NCBI GenBank assembly: GCA_016932895.1
Contig: JAFGCA010000524.1
Coordinates: 1-6,571 of the forward strand
DNA from: Sedimentisphaerales bacterium
GTDB lineage: Bacteria > Planctomycetota > Phycisphaerae > Sedimentisphaerales > SG8-4
Length of the DNA stretch: 6,571 nt
Direction of reading: 5' to 3'
In this document: in pieces, positions 155 through 6,571 of the stretch
How positions within the stretch are numbered: position 1 is the stretch's first letter
Layout of the letters: every line of letters starts with the position of its first letter
Made by a program: the position numbers and the translations under genes
The notes under the pieces: model-generated
What the model was told of the DNA's origin: nothing
Database searches by the model: none
Seen by the model: only the letters and a program-made list of their open reading frames with translations

Positions 155-685
155 CTACCTGTTGCTCTTGCTTCGCTTGGCCTGCGAGCGGCCCATGCCC
201 ATGGGGGCGGGCACAGCCTCCTTGAGCGACTTGGGCTTGCGGTCGACCACGGCCAGTTGCGTCCGGGCACGTTCCAGACGATCGGCCAGCAGGCTGGCGA
301 TCTCGCTCATCAGGCGGAAGCCAAGCTGCGGATCTTCGTAGCACAGATGACGCAGACCGGCCGCGTCGATCGCCGCAAGCCGGGTCTCGCGGGTCGTTGT
401 ACCGACGCCGGAGGTCCGATGGGGCTCGACCAGAGCCGACCAGACGAGCAGGTCGCCGTCGATGAGCGTGTCGACCGTGACCATTTCTCCGCTGCCCAGC
501 GTGTACTTGATGTCTACCTCTCCCTTGAGGATGACGTAGAGCGTGTTGGCCGGATCATGCTCGTAGAACATGACCGTTCCGGCCGGCACCACGCGTTCCT
601 CGGCCAGCATCGCTATCTGCTTGAGACTCTCCTCCGCGATCGGCGCGAAGTACGCGTAGCGACGCAACACTTCCGGCGAAATCAT
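155..685 (-). CDS. Stand-alone cyclic-nucleotide-binding-fold (CRP N-domain-like) protein
   Basis: A 176-residue protein with one cNMP-binding beta-roll and no DNA-binding domain. Residues 1-30 (MISPEVLRRYAYFAPIAEES) match the helical lead-in of CRP-like sensors; VVPAGTVMFYEHDPANTLYVILKGEVDI is the typical roll core. The phosphate-binding cassette is altered: GDLLVWSALVEPHRTSGV takes the place of the FGE(L/I)ALL...RxA pattern, so binding of cAMP or cGMP is unproven. A helix follows (FRLMSEIASLLADRLERARTQL) and then a basic tail rich in Lys, Arg and Ser. There is no helix-turn-helix, so it is not a CRP/FNR regulator. The start at 685 is set by GGAGGTG with 7 bases between; an in-frame ATG at 703 lies upstream of that site and is rejected. 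It is on the same strand as the hydrogenase genes, 180 bases after mvhA. Similar proteins occur beside some soluble hydrogenase operons, so an allosteric or accessory role is possible but unproven. Confidence 0.85.
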   Translation of the reverse strand: MISPEVLRRYAYFAPIAEESLKQIAMLAEERVVPAGTVMFYEHDPANTLYVILKGEVDIKYTLGSGEMVTVDTLIDGDLLVWSALVEPHRTSGVGTTTRETRLAAIDAAGLRHLCYEDPQLGFRLMSEIASLLADRLERARTQLAVVDRKPKSLKEAVPAPMGMGRSQAKRSKSNR

Positions 686-865: not shown

Positions 866-2323
866 TTAGCGGATCTCTTGTACGAGTTGGTATTGGGGAT
901 CGTAAACCCGCACGACCAGCGGCATCCGGCCCAACAACTCGTGTGTCGCGCAGCCGTGGCACGGGTCGTACGCCCGGAAGGCCATTTCGACCAGGTTCAG
1001 AATCCCGTCGTCGATCTTGCCTTCGCGGATGACGCCCTTGGCCGCGCGGTCGACCGACATGGCGATCCGGGCGGCGTTGTTCTGGGTGGCCACGATCAGG
1101 TTGGCCCCGGTGATCACGCCCCGTTCGTCCGTCTGATAGTGATGGAACAACGTCCCACGCGGCGCCTCGATCACCGCGACGCCCTCGCGGGGCGTGGCCG
1201 TGGGGATCGTGCGGATGTTGGGGCTGATGATCTCCGGATCGTTGGCCAGGTTCTGCATCATCTCAGCCGCCGAGAGCATCTCGACCAGCCGGGCCCAATG
1301 GGTGGCCAGCGTGTGGTGGACCGGCTTGCCGCCGAGTGTCTCGAAATACTGCTCGTAGGCCGCCTGGGCCTTGGGCGTGGCCATCCCGTCGGCCGCGTTG
1401 AGCCGGGCCAGGGGAGCCACGGCATAAACACCGCTGTCAGGCCCCTCTTCAAAGCCCTTCCAGCCGATGTCCTTCAGGTAGCAGAACTTGATATAGCTCC
1501 ACGGCTCGACGTGCTCGGCCACGTGTTTCAGATAATCCTGAGCGGAGAATTTTAGGAACTCGTTCCCATTGGGGTCGACCACACGGAGTTGCCCGTCGTA
1601 GAAGTTCACTCGATTGTTCTCGTCGACCAGACCCATGTAATATGTCCGATGGGTGTAAGCGTCGGAGAGGATCAGGTCGACATAGCCCTGGTTGGCCAGG
1701 ACGACGTCGTTGAAGATCTTCAAGGAGAACTCGGCGAAATCGACCGCCTGGTTGGCCACGTCGATGCACCGGGCCTGGTCCTCGGCGGCCAGGGGTTTGG
1801 CCACGCCGCCGGGCAGGCCCAACACGGGGTGGATCACCTTGCCGCCGGCCAGGGAGATCAGCTCCCGGGCCATCCGCCGCATGGCGATCACCTTTTTGCT
1901 CACCTCGACGCCGACCTTGCCCACCACGCCCAGGATGTTCCGCTCGGCTTTCGGCGCGTCGGGTCCCACGACGAAGTCCGGCCCGCCGAGAAAATAGAAG
2001 TGCAGCGCATGGTCCTCGAACGTGAACGCGTTGTAGACCAATTCGCGGATCATGCGTCCCGCCGGGGGCGGCTGGACGTCGTACAGGTCGTCCAGCGCCT
2101 TGGCCGCGCACATGTGGTGGGCCGTGGGGCAGACGCCGCAGATGCGGGAGGTGATCTGGGGCATGTCCTCGGCCAGGCGGCCCTGGGCGAACCGTTCGAA
2201 CCCTCGCAGCTCGGGCACCTCGAAATAGGCCCGATCGACGTTCCCCTGGTCGTTCAGGAAGATGTCGATCTTCCCGTGGCCCTCCAGCCGCGTGATCGGA
2301 TCAATCGTGATCTGCTGGGGCAT
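866..2323 (-). CDS. mvhA: MvhA-type [NiFe]-hydrogenase large (catalytic) subunit
   Basis: A 485-residue catalytic subunit that would hold the NiFe(CN)2CO site for reversible H2 splitting. The N-terminus has ITIDPITRLEGHGKI. The L1 motif is RICGVC (C62, C65) and the L2 motif is DPCHGCATH (C455, C458, H461), giving all four metal-binding cysteines with no selenocysteine codon. The 24 residues after H461 (ELLGRMPLVV onward) match the tail removed by a maturation protease in this family; no protease or hyp gene is in the window. The frame stays open upstream to 3286, but that part is an Arg/Pro-rich shadow of mvhG. The ATG at 2323 is fixed by GGAGGTG with 7 bases between, and lies 2 bases after the mvhG stop. 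The protein acts with MvhG as a soluble heterodimer attached to MvhD. Alternative: a closely related group 3a or 3b enzyme, less likely given mvhD. Confidence 0.97.
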   Translation of the reverse strand: MPQQITIDPITRLEGHGKIDIFLNDQGNVDRAYFEVPELRGFERFAQGRLAEDMPQITSRICGVCPTAHHMCAAKALDDLYDVQPPPAGRMIRELVYNAFTFEDHALHFYFLGGPDFVVGPDAPKAERNILGVVGKVGVEVSKKVIAMRRMARELISLAGGKVIHPVLGLPGGVAKPLAAEDQARCIDVANQAVDFAEFSLKIFNDVVLANQGYVDLILSDAYTHRTYYMGLVDENNRVNFYDGQLRVVDPNGNEFLKFSAQDYLKHVAEHVEPWSYIKFCYLKDIGWKGFEEGPDSGVYAVAPLARLNAADGMATPKAQAAYEQYFETLGGKPVHHTLATHWARLVEMLSAAEMMQNLANDPEIISPNIRTIPTATPREGVAVIEAPRGTLFHHYQTDERGVITGANLIVATQNNAARIAMSVDRAAKGVIREGKIDDGILNLVEMAFRAYDPCHGCATHELLGRMPLVVRVYDPQYQLVQEIR

Positions 2324-2325
2324 CG

Positions 2326-3312
2326 TCAAGCACCTCCGTTTCCGTTGCTGGGAACCTTGCGAAAGAGGGTCGAGCCGGGCACGCTGTAGCGATAGAACGT
2401 CCCGGCCGGGTCGGGAATGGCTTGCATCACGGCGCGGACCTCTGCCGGTTCCTTGGGCGAGACCAACGACGCTGCGGACGACAGGACGGCCGCGCCCTGG
2501 TCGCGGACATGGCTCAAGGGACCCAGGCAGCCCGTGCAGGGCATGTTGCCCTCGATGCACGCATGGTCGCACCCGCTCCGCGTGGCCGGGCCCAGGCATA
2601 AAAGCCCTTGGGCCAACAGGCACGTCTCCGTGTCGATCTGGATCTCGTGTGGACGCTTGAATTGGGTGATGAACTGTTCCTCCGGCTTCGTGTCGACTCG
2701 AGGACAGTCGTGGCACTGGGCCATGTCCGGCGCGAGCACTGTGCCCGGCGGGGGCAGCTTGCCCTGGACGATCGCCGTGACCGCCTCGACGATCAGCTTC
2801 ACCGGCGGCGGACAGCCGGGCAGGTAGTAGTCGACCGGCACGACCTGGTCGAGCGTCAGGACCGAGCGGTCCAGGATGGGCAGTTCCACGCGGCCCTCGG
2901 GCACGTCGGTGAAGTGCCGCGGTCGGGTGCCCTCGGGGTTGACCGTGCTGAACAGCCCGTCGTCGTAAACCGTCGAGAGGATCGACTCGAGCGAATAGAG
3001 GTTGGCCAGGCCGGGGATACCGCCCGTGTGCGAACAGCTTCCGAACGCAACCAGCAGCTTGGACTTCTGCCGGCAGAGTTCGGCCATTTCTCGCTGTTCG
3101 GAGGTGCGGATCGCGCCGTTGACGAAACAGGCGTCCATCTGGCCGTCGGCCATCGCCTCGACGTCCGACCGCTTGAAGTCCATCGCGCAGGGCCAGAAGA
3201 CGATGTCGACCAGCTCGACTACGTCGAGGACACCTTCTGCGAGGTCGACAACGGCTTCCTCGCATCCTCCGCAGGATGCGCACCAATAGAATCCGACTTG
3301 GGGCTTGGACAT
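2326..3312 (-). CDS. mvhG: MvhG-type [NiFe]-hydrogenase small subunit
   Basis: A 328-residue small subunit of a cytoplasmic group 3 [NiFe]-hydrogenase, which carries electrons away from the NiFe site. The proximal [4Fe-4S] ligands are C11 and C14 (WCASCGGCEE), C93 (GSCSHTGG) and C167 (LPGCPPP). Eight further cysteines (C200, C203, C231, C239, C248, C252, C259, C262) are exactly enough for two more all-cysteine [4Fe-4S] clusters. There is no Tat signal peptide or membrane anchor, so the enzyme should be cytoplasmic. The length and three clusters separate it from the short single-cluster HoxY of NAD-linked group 3d enzymes and support an Mvh-like (3c) or Frh-like (3a) type; the adjacent mvhD favours 3c. 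The start at 3312 is preceded by AGAAGGA with 8 bases between. It overlaps mvhD by 94 bases and stops 2 bases before mvhA, so translational coupling with mvhA is likely. Confidence 0.96.
   Translation of the reverse strand: MSKPQVGFYWCASCGGCEEAVVDLAEGVLDVVELVDIVFWPCAMDFKRSDVEAMADGQMDACFVNGAIRTSEQREMAELCRQKSKLLVAFGSCSHTGGIPGLANLYSLESILSTVYDDGLFSTVNPEGTRPRHFTDVPEGRVELPILDRSVLTLDQVVPVDYYLPGCPPPVKLIVEAVTAIVQGKLPPPGTVLAPDMAQCHDCPRVDTKPEEQFITQFKRPHEIQIDTETCLLAQGLLCLGPATRSGCDHACIEGNMPCTGCLGPLSHVRDQGAAVLSSAASLVSPKEPAEVRAVMQAIPDPAGTFYRYSVPGSTLFRKVPSNGNGGA
2331..2337 (-). promoter_or_regulatory. Ribosome binding site of mvhA
   Basis: GGAGGTG read on the minus strand, 7 bases before the ATG at 2323. 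It lies inside the last codons of mvhG. It fixes the mvhA start, which cannot be set by an upstream stop codon because the frame is open for about 960 bases further. Confidence 0.88.
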
Positions 3313-3800
3313 GTTGGGGTTCCTTCTTCGACCGCGGTGGTCATTCCCGCGACCTTATGCACAGGCACCGGCTCCATTTTGAGCGGACCCAGACGCCGTA
3401 ACTGTTGGACCATTTCGTTGGTCACGTCACGCACCTTGTCGCCTTCGGAGGCCGAGATCCACTCCAGCCGCAGCCGCTCGGGCTCGATGCCGAACTGGCC
3501 GAGCATCTGGCGCAGAAGCTCGACGCGCCGAAGGCACTTGTAGTTGCCTTCCAGATAGTGGCAGTCGCCCGGGTGGCAACCACCGATCAACACCCCGTCG
3601 GCGCCCTGGCGGAAGGCGGCCAGGACGAACTGGGGATCGAGCCGCCCCGAACACATCAGCCGGACAACCCGCGTGTTGGGGGCGTAGTCCATCCGGGACG
3701 TCCCGGCCAGGTCCGAGGCGGTGTAGGTGCACCAATTGCAGAAAAACGCCACGATCCGGGGATCGTATCCGTTGGACTCCGAAGAGACGGGTTCAGACAT
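3219..3800 (-). CDS. mvhD: MvhD, hydrogenase [2Fe-2S] delta subunit with unusual C-terminal extension
   Basis: A 193-residue MvhD-family protein, which in methanogens carries one [2Fe-2S] cluster and passes electrons from MvhAG to HdrA. Family landmarks are IVAFFCNWCTYTASDLAG (C21, C24), RVVRLMCSGR (C50), GADGVLIGGCHPGDCHYLEGNYK (C75, C80) and C89. The ATG at 3800 lies inside the end of the HdrA-like gene (8-base overlap) with an AAGGG-type site 10 bases upstream; the frame stays open to 4013, but that part is a shadow of the HdrA-like gene. The recognisable family sequence ends near residue 142 (QQLRRLGPLKMEP). The last 45 or so residues look unrelated to MvhD and run 94 bases into mvhG in another frame. 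Both other frames have stops just before mvhG (TAA at 3355-3357, TGA at 3341-3343), so a small frameshift near the 3' end is possible. The function call is strong; the true C-terminus is uncertain. Confidence 0.92.
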   Translation of the reverse strand: MSEPVSSESNGYDPRIVAFFCNWCTYTASDLAGTSRMDYAPNTRVVRLMCSGRLDPQFVLAAFRQGADGVLIGGCHPGDCHYLEGNYKCLRRVELLRQMLGQFGIEPERLRLEWISASEGDKVRDVTNEMVQQLRRLGPLKMEPVPVHKVAGMTTAVEEGTPTCPSPKSDSIGAHPAEDARKPLSTSQKVSST

Positions 3801-5589
3801 AGCACATGATCCCTTCGATTTCGTCGAAAACCTGCCGGTTGGTAAACAATCGTTGGCTGGCCGCGCCCGAGGGGCACGACGCCACGCACGTGCCGCAGCC
3901 CTTGCAAAGGGCCTCGTCGACCACGGCGACCTGTTTCTCGGGGTCGCGCGAAATGGCCAAATAGGGGCACAGTGGAATGCACGTCTTGCAGCCGGAACAA
4001 AGCTCCTCGTCAATCGACGCGGTGCTCGGTTCCAGCTCGATCCGGCCGCAGTCGATCATCGCCAGGGCCTCGGCCGCCGCGGCGCCGGCCTGGGCAACGG
4101 TATCAGGAATGTCCTTGGGCCCCTGGCAGGCCCCGGCCAGGAATATCCCGTCGCTGGTGGTGTCCACCGGAGCGAGCTTGGGATGTTTCTCCGCGAAAAA
4201 GCCGTCAACGCTTTTGCACATCCCCAAAATCTGGGAAAGCTTATCGCTGTCGGCACCGGCCTTGATACCGGCGGAAAGAATGACCATGTCCAGCGGCACG
4301 CGCCGCACCAGGCCCAGCAGGGTATCCTCGCAGACTACTGTCAGCTTGCCCTCTTCCTCGGCGGAAGACGCAACATCCGTGATTTCAGCTACCTTGCCGC
4401 GGATAAAATTGACATCCTCCGACATCAGCCTCTTGTAGAACTCCTCGTAGCCCTTGCCGAACGCCCGCATGTCGATATAGAAATTATAGACTTCGGCGTC
4501 GGTCTTCTCCTTGACCAGGTGGGCGAACTTGAGCGAGTACATACAGCAGACACGGGAGCAGTAGACCTGGTGGTTTTCATCACGGCTGCCGACACAGTGT
4601 ACGATTCCCACGGATTTCGGCGGCTGGCCGTCGCTTTTCATCAGTTTTCCACCGGTAGGGCCGCTGGCGTGGCTGAGACGCTCGAACTCAAGGGCGGTAA
4701 TCACATTCGGCAGGCGGCCGTAGCCGTAACGGGGGATTTCCCGCGAGTCGAACATGTCGAAACCCGTGGCCATGATTATTGTCCCGACCTTGATTTCTCT
4801 GACCTCGTCTTCTGCCTTATGGTCGATAGCTTCGGCTTCGCAGTTGTCCTCGCATACCTTGCAGCCTTCGGTCTTGAAATGCATGCAGGTTTTCTGATCG
4901 ATCACCGGCACCCTGGGTACCGCCTGCGGAAACTGCAGGTAGATCGGTTTGCGGTTCATCAGCCCCTGTTCGTACTCGAAGGGGATGTTCACCGGGCTCC
5001 TGTCGGTGATATGTCCCTGTCGGATCGAGCCGGTGGGACAGATCGACTCGCAGGCGCCGCAGAGACGGCAGTCGTCGCTGGGCTCACGGAAAGGAGTGGT
5101 CACCGTGCGGTAGCCGCCCCTGCCTTCGAAAGCCAGGGCTCCCACTTTCATTACATCGTCGCAGATCCGCACGCACATGCCGCAGAGGATACATTCTCCG
5201 CCTTCTCCCACCAGGCAGCTCTGACTGGCCTTGGGCCGGTCGAAACGGCTTTCGTTGATACCCAGTTCGGCCGCCAACTCGATTACGGGTTCGGAATGCG
5301 GGCAGCGGGCCAGCATCAACTCGGCCAGGATGCGCCGGATCTTGAGGACTTTCTCGGTCTTGGTAGCCACTTCCATACCTTCGGACACCGGAAGAGTGCA
5401 ACTGGTGAATAATCTGGTACGGTTCCGCTGGGTTACCTCGACAATACAGAACCGGCAGGCCCCATACGGGGGCAGTGATTCATGGTGGCAGAGAGTCGGA
5501 ATATGGATGCCTGCGGACCTGGCTGCCTCAAGCACAGTCTGCCCGGGAGGGCTTTCCACCTTTCTGCCGTCGATGGTAAGTTTAACCAT
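3793..5589 (-). CDS. hdrA: NuoG-HdrA chimeric iron-sulfur protein (HdrA-like, lacking the N-terminal FAD-binding segment)
   Basis: A 598-residue electron-transfer protein. Residues 1-80 are a NuoG/HydA-like [2Fe-2S] ferredoxin domain (C34, C45, C48, C64). Residues 130-190 carry two [4Fe-4S] motifs (C133/136/139/143 and C174/177/180/184). The His-Cys cluster motif usual between these domains in NuoG is not intact; only C96, H98 and C125 remain. From about residue 200 the sequence is HdrA: NRKPIYLQFPQAVP, C235/243/246/250, ATGFDMFD, YGYGRLPNVITALEFERL, ASGPTGG, CVGSRD, YCSRVCCMY, YIDMRAFGKGYEEFY, then GIFLAGACQGPKDIP. Residues 531-572 hold two more [4Fe-4S] motifs. The GGGIAG-like N-terminal flavin motif of standard HdrA is absent, so flavin binding is doubtful. 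Start: ATG preceded by AGAGGG with 7 bases between. It overlaps mvhD by 8 bases. By context it should link MvhD to the NuoF-like subunit. The family assignment is firm; the electron route is inferred. Confidence 0.92.
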   Translation of the reverse strand: MVKLTIDGRKVESPPGQTVLEAARSAGIHIPTLCHHESLPPYGACRFCIVEVTQRNRTRLFTSCTLPVSEGMEVATKTEKVLKIRRILAELMLARCPHSEPVIELAAELGINESRFDRPKASQSCLVGEGGECILCGMCVRICDDVMKVGALAFEGRGGYRTVTTPFREPSDDCRLCGACESICPTGSIRQGHITDRSPVNIPFEYEQGLMNRKPIYLQFPQAVPRVPVIDQKTCMHFKTEGCKVCEDNCEAEAIDHKAEDEVREIKVGTIIMATGFDMFDSREIPRYGYGRLPNVITALEFERLSHASGPTGGKLMKSDGQPPKSVGIVHCVGSRDENHQVYCSRVCCMYSLKFAHLVKEKTDAEVYNFYIDMRAFGKGYEEFYKRLMSEDVNFIRGKVAEITDVASSAEEEGKLTVVCEDTLLGLVRRVPLDMVILSAGIKAGADSDKLSQILGMCKSVDGFFAEKHPKLAPVDTTSDGIFLAGACQGPKDIPDTVAQAGAAAAEALAMIDCGRIELEPSTASIDEELCSGCKTCIPLCPYLAISRDPEKQVAVVDEALCKGCGTCVASCPSGAASQRLFTNRQVFDEIEGIMCYV

Positions 5590-5604
5590 GGTTTAACCCT
5601 CTAT

Positions 5605-6571
5605 TTATTGGCGAATGACAGCATCAAATTTGCAAACATCGTAACAGACACCGCATTTGGTGCATTTGCTCTGATCGAGAACGTGCGGTTTCTTGCTCTC
5701 CCCGCTGATCGCTTCCGCAGGACAGTTGACTGCGCAGAGCGTGCAACCGTTGCATTTTTCCTTGTCGATTTCATAGGTGACCAGCGCCTTGCATACTCCA
5801 GCAGGACAGCGATGTTGCTCCACGTGAGCTTTGTATTCGTCCTCGAAATACTCCATAGTTGTCAGGACCGGGTTGGGAGCGGTTTTTCCCAGTTCGCAAA
5901 GAGATGCCACCTGGGTAACTTCAGCCAGATCATGCAGCAGCTCCAGGTCTTCCGGCCCGGCCTCGCCGTCACATATTTTCTGTAGTATCTGCGACATGTG
6001 GATCAGGCCCTCGCGGCAGGGTGTGCACTTGCCGCAGGACTCATCTTTGAGGAAATTCACGAAGTAGCGGGCGAAATCGACCATGCAGGTGTCTTCGTCC
6101 ATCACAATCATGCCGCCGGAGCCCATCATGGAGCCGACTTCCACCAGGCGGTCATAATCGATCGGGATGTCCAGATGCTTTTCGCTGAGCACTCCGCCGC
6201 TGGGTCCCCCGGTTTGTACTCCCTTGAATTTCTTTCCTCCCGGGATTCCCTCGCCGATGTCCCAGATTACCTTGCGCAGGGTTATCCCCATCGGCACTTC
6301 CACCAGGCCGGTGTTGTTGATTTTTCCAACCAGGCTGAAAATCTTGGTGCCCTTGCTGCCGCCCCAGGGGTTTTCGCTCACATCGCCGGTTCCAACGCTG
6401 GTGTACCACTTGGCGCCGTTGTTGATAATCTTGGGCACTGTGGCCCAGGTCTCCACATTGTTCAGGGTGGTGGGACTGTCCCAAAGTCCGCGCTCCACCG
6501 TGTGAATATGCTTGGCACGGGGTTCTCCGGCCCGGCCCTCGATAGAGGCCATCAGGGCGGTGGATTCGCCG
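5605..6571 (-). CDS. nuoF: NuoF/HydB-like NAD(P)H-binding flavoprotein subunit, partial (5' end outside window)
   Basis: This is the C-terminal 321 residues of a NuoF/HoxF/HydB/HndC-family subunit, which in known relatives binds FMN and exchanges electrons with NAD(H) or NADP(H). The frame is open to the right edge. It begins with [12 protein letters not shown], a conserved internal NuoF motif, so the Met at 6552 is internal and the real start lies beyond 6571. Visible in order are [19 protein letters not shown], the GGPSGG loop, the N3-type [4Fe-4S] motif [12 protein letters not shown] with its fourth cysteine in [12 protein letters not shown], a CPAGVC pair, and a C-terminal double [4Fe-4S] ferredoxin domain ([12 protein letters not shown] and [11 protein letters not shown]). 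The added ferredoxin domain points to the HydB/HndC type of soluble hydrogenases rather than respiratory complex I NuoF. It ends 15 bases before the next gene, which suggests cotranscription. A NuoE-like partner would be expected upstream but cannot be seen. The choice between NAD and NADP cannot be made from this part. Confidence 0.93.

What the first reader, a model, noticed from the sequence alone, without database searches (positions are those of the whole stretch)
866..6571. Mvh-type [NiFe]-hydrogenase wired to a NuoF-like NAD(P)H module: candidate NAD(P)-linked, possibly electron-bifurcating complex
The sequence shows an unbroken same-strand order NuoF-like, NuoG-HdrA chimera, MvhD, MvhG, MvhA with gaps or overlaps of 15, -8, -94 and +2 bases. 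In methanogens MvhADG feeds HdrABC, while NAD-linked soluble hydrogenases normally use HoxFU with a short HoxY. Here a three-cluster Mvh-type small subunit and MvhD are combined with a HydB-type flavoprotein. The inferred activity is H2 plus NAD(P), perhaps with ferredoxin as a second partner. Related Nuo/Hdr/Mvh combinations may exist in sequenced anaerobes, so novelty must be checked.
Basis: partly seen in the sequence, partly recalled or inferred. Interest (0 to 1): 0.75.

Follow-up and report, generated by a model that had tools for sequence, protein, structure and literature searches.

The report
NADH module spliced into hydrogenase-linked HdrA
The window shows part of a bacterial hydrogen-metabolism operon in which an NADH/ferredoxin electron-splitting module is built into a second electron-splitting enzyme by cutting one of its subunits in two; the arrangement is real and recurs in many uncultured bacteria, but this particular contig is probably stitched together from two genomes.

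Summary
The five genes, their order and gaps are as described. But the window is a mosaic. Chimera residues 1-496 differ from a metagenomic homologue at 22 positions, residues 497-598 at 45. None of 417 control pairs shows such a drop, and third-position GC jumps there, beyond all 20 control loci. Probably an assembly join of two related operons, less likely a recent recombination.

The arrangement itself is real. In 32 public-genome loci the NuoG-HdrA chimera carries only the C-terminal part of HdrA. The FAD-binding N-terminal part is an upstream gene in 29 of 32, fused to NuoE in four, usually preceded by HdrB and HdrC. A Bfu-type NuoE-NuoF-NuoG' module is thus spliced into hdrCBA-mvhDGA, splitting HdrA inside its inserted ferredoxin domain. 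NuoF keeps the ligands of clusters B1-B4.

Best reading: a Bfu (type 2) H2-NAD(H)-ferredoxin module hard-wired into HdrABC-MvhADG. I found no description in the papers searched. A new variant of known kinds, nearest to Bam, MvhADG-HdrABC and HydABCSL.

The parts
5605..6570 (-). C-terminal ~320 residues of a NuoF/HydB/BfuB-like flavoprotein (cut by the window edge); ligands of clusters B1, B2 (C162, C200, H249, C255, C260) and B3/B4 present
   Evidence: B2 ligand numbers of A. mobile HydB from PMC8880783 (passage)
3793..5589 (-). NuoG'::HdrA-C chimera, 598 aa: residues 1-191 BfuA/NuoG-like (2Fe-2S, two 4Fe-4S), 198-594 C-terminal part of HdrA; no FAD GxGxxG motif seen
   Evidence: fold of the homologue P0003
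4099..4200 (.). suspected join between two source genomes (chimera residues 464-497, a highly conserved stretch)
3219..3800 (-). MvhD (FlpD family) 2Fe-2S linker; the reading frame runs on past the stop used by several relatives into mvhG
2326..3312 (-). MvhG/VhuG-like small subunit; 16 cysteines, enough for three 4Fe-4S clusters (cluster count inferred)
866..2323 (-). MvhA/VhuA-like NiFe large subunit (RICGVC at 60-65, DPCHGC at 453-458)
155..685 (-). cNMP-binding-domain protein downstream of mvhA; role unknown, not counted as part of the complex

Best explanation
The window carries the 3' end of an Hdr-Bfu-Mvh operon type. In its intact form the order is hdrC, hdrB, hdrA-N, often DRTGG/HATPase/[FeFe]-like sensor/PHP genes, nuoE, often a small 2Fe-2S gene, nuoF, nuoG'::hdrA-C, mvhD, mvhG, mvhA. 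A Bfu-type NADH/ferredoxin module has been inserted into hdrA between the two 4Fe-4S motifs of its inserted ferredoxin domain, so HdrA is made as two chains and one of them is covalently the BfuA subunit. SHOWN: gene order, split, fusions, cluster ligands. [quoted passage not shown] The enzyme would couple H2, NAD(H), ferredoxin and a disulfide-type acceptor; the direction is unknown. In this particular window the NuoF/chimera half and the HdrA-C-end/MvhDGA half most likely come from two genomes joined during assembly.
For: Split: HdrA-N in 29 of 32 chimera loci, NuoE 30, NuoF 30 (L018 has a further NuoF fragment at a contig end), HdrC 25, HdrB 24, MvhD 26, MvhG 25, MvhA 21; all eight in 15 of 32, and many misses lie at contig ends. 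On the full-length HdrA of L035, HdrA-N mostly ends at 263-300 and the chimera starts matching at 245-278 in 21 of 32. GxGxxG in 0 of 32 chimeras, 25 of 29 HdrA-N and 41 of 42 other HdrA of at least 640 residues. HdrA-N fused to NuoE in L001, L002, L003, L005. Pfam of the L006 operon. In the 30 strict loci B1 and B2 ligands are kept in all NuoF except the semi-conserved B2 Cys; NuoE motif 30 of 30; the His-ligated motif taken for A3 absent in 30 of 30 chimeras, as in type 2 Bfu. Fold search with P0003: the N part's best match is the BfuA-like chain 9mqx_A, the C part's are HdrA structures. Seven further loci in a sample of the phylum of L013. Mosaic.
Against: No biochemistry. 5 of 32 loci (L008, L010, L014, L021, L023) have the split HdrA but no MvhDGA behind it although about 10 kb of downstream sequence is present, so the hydrogenase is not obligatory. 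L021 has neither NuoE nor NuoF. Whether the FAD site really forms from two chains was not modelled; the single-chain model is poor (pLDDT 71.7, pTM 0.43). All 80 loci are titled as metagenome-assembled; no isolate was found. In the window itself neither HdrA-N, NuoE nor HdrBC can be seen, and the linkage is probably artificial.
Confidence: 0.62

Rival explanations
1. The window is a natural recombinant: in one organism the end of hdrA and mvhDGA were recently replaced by those of a standard hdrA-mvhDGA operon, giving a working hybrid.
For: The reading frame is intact across the break. L003 and L004 show NuoF-chimera genes whose HdrA part and MvhDGA resemble those of the one-piece-HdrA operons, so the two lineages have mixed in nature.
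Against: The break is sharp inside a highly conserved stretch and coincides with a GC3 jump of 0.135, against a range of -0.073 to +0.070 in 20 relatives with all five genes. In L003 and L004 nearest neighbours do not switch between the two halves of the gene.
Confidence: 0.25
2. Two separate enzymes share one operon: a free Bfu (HydABC-like) module and a standard HdrABC-MvhADG.
For: Split-HdrA/Bfu clusters without hydrogenase exist, and one-piece HdrA-MvhDGA operons without an adjacent NuoF are common.
Against: BfuA and part of HdrA are one polypeptide in the 32 loci (this is how they were picked out), and BfuC (NuoE) is fused to the other part in four of them. The chimera alone lacks the FAD motif.
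Confidence: 0.1
3. A non-bifurcating NAD-linked hydrogenase: NuoF serves only as diaphorase and the HdrA parts as wiring.
For: NuoF homologues in several complexes do not bifurcate (PMC9304861, section read). No assay exists here.
Against: Clusters B2-B5 are stated in PMC9304861 to be missing from non-bifurcating homologues; B2 ligands and the C-terminal B3/B4 domain are kept in the window and in 27-30 of 30 relatives per position, the semi-conserved B2 Cys apart.
Confidence: 0.15

Closest known systems
MvhADG-HdrABC of methanogens (group 3c hydrogenase with heterodisulfide reductase; PDB 5odc)
   Same: MvhA, MvhG, MvhD, HdrB, HdrC and both parts of HdrA are present in intact relatives; the HdrA part matches 5odc
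   Different: HdrA is split in two chains and a NuoEFG-type NAD(H)/ferredoxin module lies between the parts
NiFe-HydABCSL of Acetomicrobium mobile (NiFe-Bfu, type 3; PDB 7t2r)
   Same: NiFe hydrogenase joined to a BfuABC module with a B2 cluster; its large subunit scores almost as high as MvhA against the window's (378 v. 382 bits)
   Different: Five subunits, HydA, B, C, S and L, with one cluster in S (passages of PMC8880783); no HdrA, HdrBC or MvhD. Its HydA has clusters A3 and A5, whereas this BfuA part lacks the His-ligated motif
Bam complex (class II benzoyl-CoA reductase, BamB-I; Bam-Bfu, type 2)
   Same: Described in PMC9304861 as a BfuABC module (subunits I, H, G) plus an HdrA-type module in one complex, proposed to act in series
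   Different: Tungsten aromatic reductase instead of a NiFe hydrogenase; a split HdrA fused to BfuA is not mentioned in the parts read
Bacterial hdrA-mvhDGA operons with one-piece HdrA (the other loci here)
   Same: Same hydrogenase and HdrA families; the window's own downstream half groups here. HdrC and HdrB lie upstream in several (e.g. L100, L101, L117, L120)
   Different: One-piece HdrA with GxGxxG and no NuoEF between

Membership tests
Bfu family (BfuABC bifurcating enzymes) | BfuB with clusters B1-B5 including the 4Cys+His B2 site | tested here: met
   B1-B4 ligands in the window, B2 spacing identical to A. mobile HydB; 30 relatives. B5 was not tested: that part lies beyond the window edge
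Bfu family (BfuABC bifurcating enzymes) | BfuC (NuoE-like) subunit | tested here: met
   In relatives only: NuoE in 30 of 32, PF01257 in L006. Not visible in the window
Bfu family, type 2 | BfuA without A3 and A5, plus extra subunits feeding it | tested here: met
   HxxxCxxCx5C absent in 30 of 30 chimeras and in the window; 2Fe-2S and two 4Fe-4S motifs present in the window. That this motif is A3 is recalled; A5 was judged only from the HdrA-type C part
Bfu family (BfuABC bifurcating enzymes) | coupled reduction of NAD+ and ferredoxin | not testable with these tools
   needs purified enzyme
Group 3c NiFe hydrogenase (Mvh/Vhu) | MvhA/MvhG of the Mvh type with MvhD | tested here: met
   VhuA and VhuG profiles best but below NCBIfam cut-offs, FlpD in Pfam; closest PDB chain MvhA, HydL nearly equal; about 50-79% identity to HdrA-linked Mvh loci against 37% to the NuoF-linked paralogues in L049 and L055. 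VhuA also scores best on those paralogues, so the profile alone does not separate 3c from 3d; no HydDB run and no tree with named reference groups
HdrABC heterodisulfide reductase | HdrA with FAD-binding Rossmann motif in one chain | tested here: not met
   0 of 32 chimeras have GxGxxG; the motif is in the separate HdrA-N (25 of 29)
HdrABC heterodisulfide reductase | HdrB (CCG domains) and HdrC present | tested here: met
   In relatives only: HdrB 24 of 32, HdrC 25 of 32; Pfam CCG in L006; L020 and L026 have ~400-aa proteins that look like HdrC joined to an HdrB-like part. Not visible in the window

The most novel reading that the evidence does not exclude
A single complex holds two electron-bifurcating centres in series, the FMN/Fe-S core of Bfu and the FAD of a two-chain HdrA. 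They meet at the inserted ferredoxin domain, the proposed exit to free ferredoxin in the methanogen enzyme, so that H2, NAD(H), ferredoxin and a thiol/disulfide couple are balanced by one machine.
Probability: 0.45. Interest if true: 0.8.

Novelty: new variant of a known kind. Interest (0 to 1): 0.6.

Why it matters
If true, two independently evolved bifurcation mechanisms were merged by splitting one subunit at its ferredoxin outlet. That would give a testable picture of how bifurcating modules are wired together and a candidate H2/NADH/ferredoxin hub in many uncultured anaerobes, where such loci may at present be annotated simply as group 3c hydrogenases. The Bam complex, whose bifurcation could not be demonstrated according to PMC9304861, has a similar pair of modules, so a soluble hydrogenase version could make the question easier to test. 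The mosaic result also warns that gene-order novelty in short metagenome contigs needs an intragenic check.

Tried and rejected
First idea rejected: that the chimera had simply lost the HdrA flavin and was only a wire. The missing part turned up upstream in relatives.

NCBIfam VhuA as proof of group 3c: rejected, because it also ranks first on the NuoF-linked paralogues.

The AlphaFold model of the homologue P0003 was weak and was used only for fold matching, not for the flavin site.

SECIS-like folding behind the in-frame TGA codons was not clearly better than shuffles (best z -1.59, for an MvhD site): inconclusive.

Literature: seven searches and passages or sections of 11 papers gave no description of a split HdrA with NuoEF between its parts; most listed papers were not opened (one search found 50 and one search found 150, 30 listed each). 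Two more searches and passages of two more papers concerned selenocysteine. The nearest remark seen is in PMC12142623 (passage), which assigns some NuoEFG homologues of a sulfur-disproportionating isolate to 'Hox or Mvh' hydrogenases. Appel et al. 2021 on HdrA(BC) modules was not read (cited in papers seen) and could hold the arrangement; supplements were not readable.

Not done: HydDB classification, read mapping over the break, multi-chain structure prediction, a test of whether the split arose once, HdrA-N or NuoE of the window's own organism (off the contig, no genome held).
Full report
WHAT IS IN THE WINDOW. Minus-strand ORFs: NuoF-like 5605-6570 (open at the edge), NuoG-HdrA chimera 3793-5589, MvhD 3219-3800, MvhG 2326-3312, MvhA 866-2323, and a cNMP-binding-domain protein at 155-685. 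Pfam and NCBIfam agree: NuoF 251 bits over its C-part; chimera 1-191 like NuoG/HoxU/HydA and 198-594 like HdrA2 positions 253-640; FlpD; VhuG; VhuA. The -94 overlap comes from a missing stop: several relatives end MvhD in a TGA at that point, the window has a Cys codon.

THE WINDOW IS A MOSAIC. Against P0003, its closest homologue (89% overall), the chimera differs at 22 of 496 positions up to residue 496 and at 45 of 102 after it, two of these being end gaps. Its 12 best partners for residues 1-480 are only 52-59% identical over residues 500-598, and the 12 best partners for the C-part are 53-62% over the N-part (120 homologues). Control: among 417 pairs of other homologues with at least 75% N-part identity, N minus C identity averages -0.9 (SD 5.7, maximum 13.8); the window's 13 such pairs average 25.7 (minimum 21.6). 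GC3 is 0.716 upstream (NuoF plus chimera 1-496) and 0.851 downstream; in 20 relatives with all five genes the same difference averages 0.001 (SD 0.034, range -0.073 to +0.070). In trees the upstream part (chimera residues 196-490) sits with the split-HdrA loci L001, L002 and L005 (Planctomycetota) at modest support (0.61-0.82), and the downstream part with L037 (0.95) and L071, both one-piece HdrA operons. The join lies in the conserved stretch at about 4099-4200. The longest exact DNA match of that region to any of the 80 loci is 29 bases, so the parents themselves are not in hand. I favour an assembly join (about 3:1) over recent recombination. L003 and L004 show that NuoF-chimera operons with HdrA-C and MvhDGA like those of the other lineage exist, but their nearest neighbours do not switch inside the gene.

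THE ARRANGEMENT IS REAL. ORF mapping finds 32 loci where a NuoG-like N-terminus is joined to an HdrA-like C-part: 30 strict ones (where lack of the Rossmann motif was one criterion), L018 cut at a contig end, and L021 without NuoEF. Of the other 48 loci, 41 have a one-piece HdrA with GxGxxG; most of the rest are cut. In chimera loci the order NuoF, chimera, MvhD, MvhG, MvhA is the rule. Their titles name Planctomycetota, Zixibacteria, Neomarinimicrobiota, Acidobacteriota/Aminicenantes, Chloroflexota, Armatimonadota, Ignavibacteria, Coatesbacteria, Eisenbacteria, GN15 and Calditrichaeota.

HdrA IS SPLIT. Looking upstream of NuoF showed a gene of about 280-330 residues that is the missing N-terminal part of HdrA, with FAD Rossmann motif and the first 4Fe-4S motif of the inserted ferredoxin domain (Pfam). 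In L001, L002, L003 and L005 it is fused to NuoE. On the full-length HdrA of L035, HdrA-N mostly ends at 263-300; in L026 and L030 it is interrupted by a TGA. The chimera starts matching at 245-278 in 21 of 32 and at 203-233 in the other 11, which probably reflects ferredoxin-motif similarity of the NuoG part. GxGxxG occurs in 0 of 32 chimeras (before any selection on it), 25 of 29 HdrA-N (several of the rest are cut or interrupted) and 41 of 42 other HdrA of at least 640 residues (L029 is the exception). Counts over all 32 loci, misses at contig ends included: HdrC 25, HdrB 24, HdrA-N 29, NuoE 30, NuoF 30, MvhD 26, MvhG 25, MvhA 21; all eight in 15. Five loci (L008, L010, L014, L021, L023) with about 10 kb downstream have no MvhDGA; the contig of L014 holds a second, complete locus (L121). 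In L006 and others DRTGG, HATPase, a Fe_hyd_lg_C protein and PHP genes lie between hdrA-N and nuoE; in L002 and L005 such genes lie between nuoF and the chimera. I recall such genes from HydABC operons; no call shows it.

SECOND SAMPLE. In 199 genomes of the phylum of G012 (L013, titled Acidobacteria), 46 have an MvhA-like match at E 1e-60. Of 29 rows with at least 50% identity I fetched the surroundings of 28 (G108 left out). Ten are split-HdrA loci: L104, L105, L113, L114, L116, L118, L119, L121, L122, L123. L114 is cut inside NuoF, so its HdrA-N is not visible. L099, L110 and L111 are too short to tell.

CLUSTERS. Cys/His ligands of B2 in A. mobile HydB are C438, C476, H525, C531, C536 (PMC8880783, passage). 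The window has C162, C200, H249, C255, C260 with the same spacings. In the 30 strict loci four of these are invariant and the fifth is Cys (8), Thr (16) or another residue (6); the paper calls that position semi-conserved, Cys or Thr, in [FeFe] enzymes. B1 is 30 of 30, B3/B4 27-30 of 30 per position, the NuoE motif 30 of 30. The window's chimera has the 2Fe-2S and two 4Fe-4S sites; the His-ligated motif is absent in it and in 30 of 30 relatives, which fits Bfu type 2 as defined in PMC9304861 (section 5 read) if that motif is A3 (recalled). Fold matches of the P0003 model: N part to 9mqx_A, the bifurcating aldehyde oxidoreductase's NuoG-like chain (rmsd 1.9 over 193 columns), C part to HdrA of 5odc and relatives.

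HOW IT PROBABLY WORKS. Shown: gene order, fusions and ligands. Inferred: H2 electrons run through MvhA, MvhG and MvhD to HdrA. The two HdrA chains rebuild the FAD site. The split falls between the two 4Fe-4S motifs of the inserted ferredoxin domain, described in PMC9012536 (passage) as the route to free ferredoxin, so Bfu would be plugged into that outlet. PMC9304861 proposes a series arrangement of Bfu and HdrA for Bam-Bfu. The direction and the partner of HdrBC are unknown.

NOVELTY. The parts are known; the split-HdrA/Bfu combination was not found in seven paper searches or in the passages and sections read. PMC7509429 (passage) reports MvhADG/HdrABC and an [FeFe] group A hydrogenase for an Ignavibacteriae genome without mention of a split. 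PMC12142623 (passage) suspects that NuoEFG homologues of a sulfur-disproportionating isolate belong to Hox or Mvh hydrogenases. Appel et al. 2021 was not read. I rate it a new variant of a known kind.

SIDE OBSERVATION. An in-frame TGA replaces MvhA Cys65, the second Cys of RICGVC, in L004, L013, L016 and L073 among the 80 loci and in two more genomes of the second sample, L113 and L110. A 2026 review table lists Sec in MvhA only as UxxC (PMC13188914, passage). Of four of these genomes, tRNA-Sec is over the cut-off in three (G004, G012, G013) and 46.7 against 47 in G008, which is weak since many further, probably ordinary, tRNA matches score 30-51 bits in the same search; SelB is over the cut-off in all four. 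L113 and L110 were not tested. Hairpin folding was not clearly better than shuffles.

Noticed in passing
L004:6337, L013:13362 (= L104), L016:13448, L073:3501, L113 and L110 (MvhA codon 65): In-frame TGA exactly at the second Cys of the L1 motif (RICGVC to RICGV-TGA) of MvhA in six genomes, with both split (L004, L013, L016, L113) and one-piece (L073) HdrA: a likely selenocysteine at a Ni-Fe ligand position not listed in a 2026 selenoproteome review table. For L004 only NuoE onward is on the contig. That this Cys is the bridging ligand is recalled.
   Followed up: partly
L016:12019, L046:7620, L068:7713, L069:3395, L123 (MvhD codon 75): In-frame TGA at Cys75 of MvhD (GGCHPGDC), another probable selenocysteine site.
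   Followed up: partly
L026:6576-7421, L030:1633-2478, L097: HdrA-N or HdrA with a TGA at the second Cys of its DCxxC motif; probably the selenocysteine known from HdrA (CxxU).
   Followed up: partly
L010 and L016, NuoF ORFs of 1024 and 1058 aa: NuoF carries a C-terminal glutamate-synthase-small-subunit-like pyridine nucleotide oxidoreductase extension (family name judged by eye).
   Followed up: no
L020:1161-2372, L026:3024-4223: A ~400-residue protein like HdrC joined to an HdrB-like part lies upstream of HdrA-N, and no separate HdrB was found (HdrD/GlpC-like, judged by eye).
   Followed up: no
L049:572-6816, L055:328-7223: A second NuoF, NuoG-like, NiFe small and large subunit cluster in the same loci; L055 NuoF has the B2 spacing and L049 does not. 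Possibly HydABCSL-like.
   Followed up: partly
window 155-685: cNMP-binding-domain protein next to mvhA; Pfam finds no DNA-binding domain.
   Followed up: no
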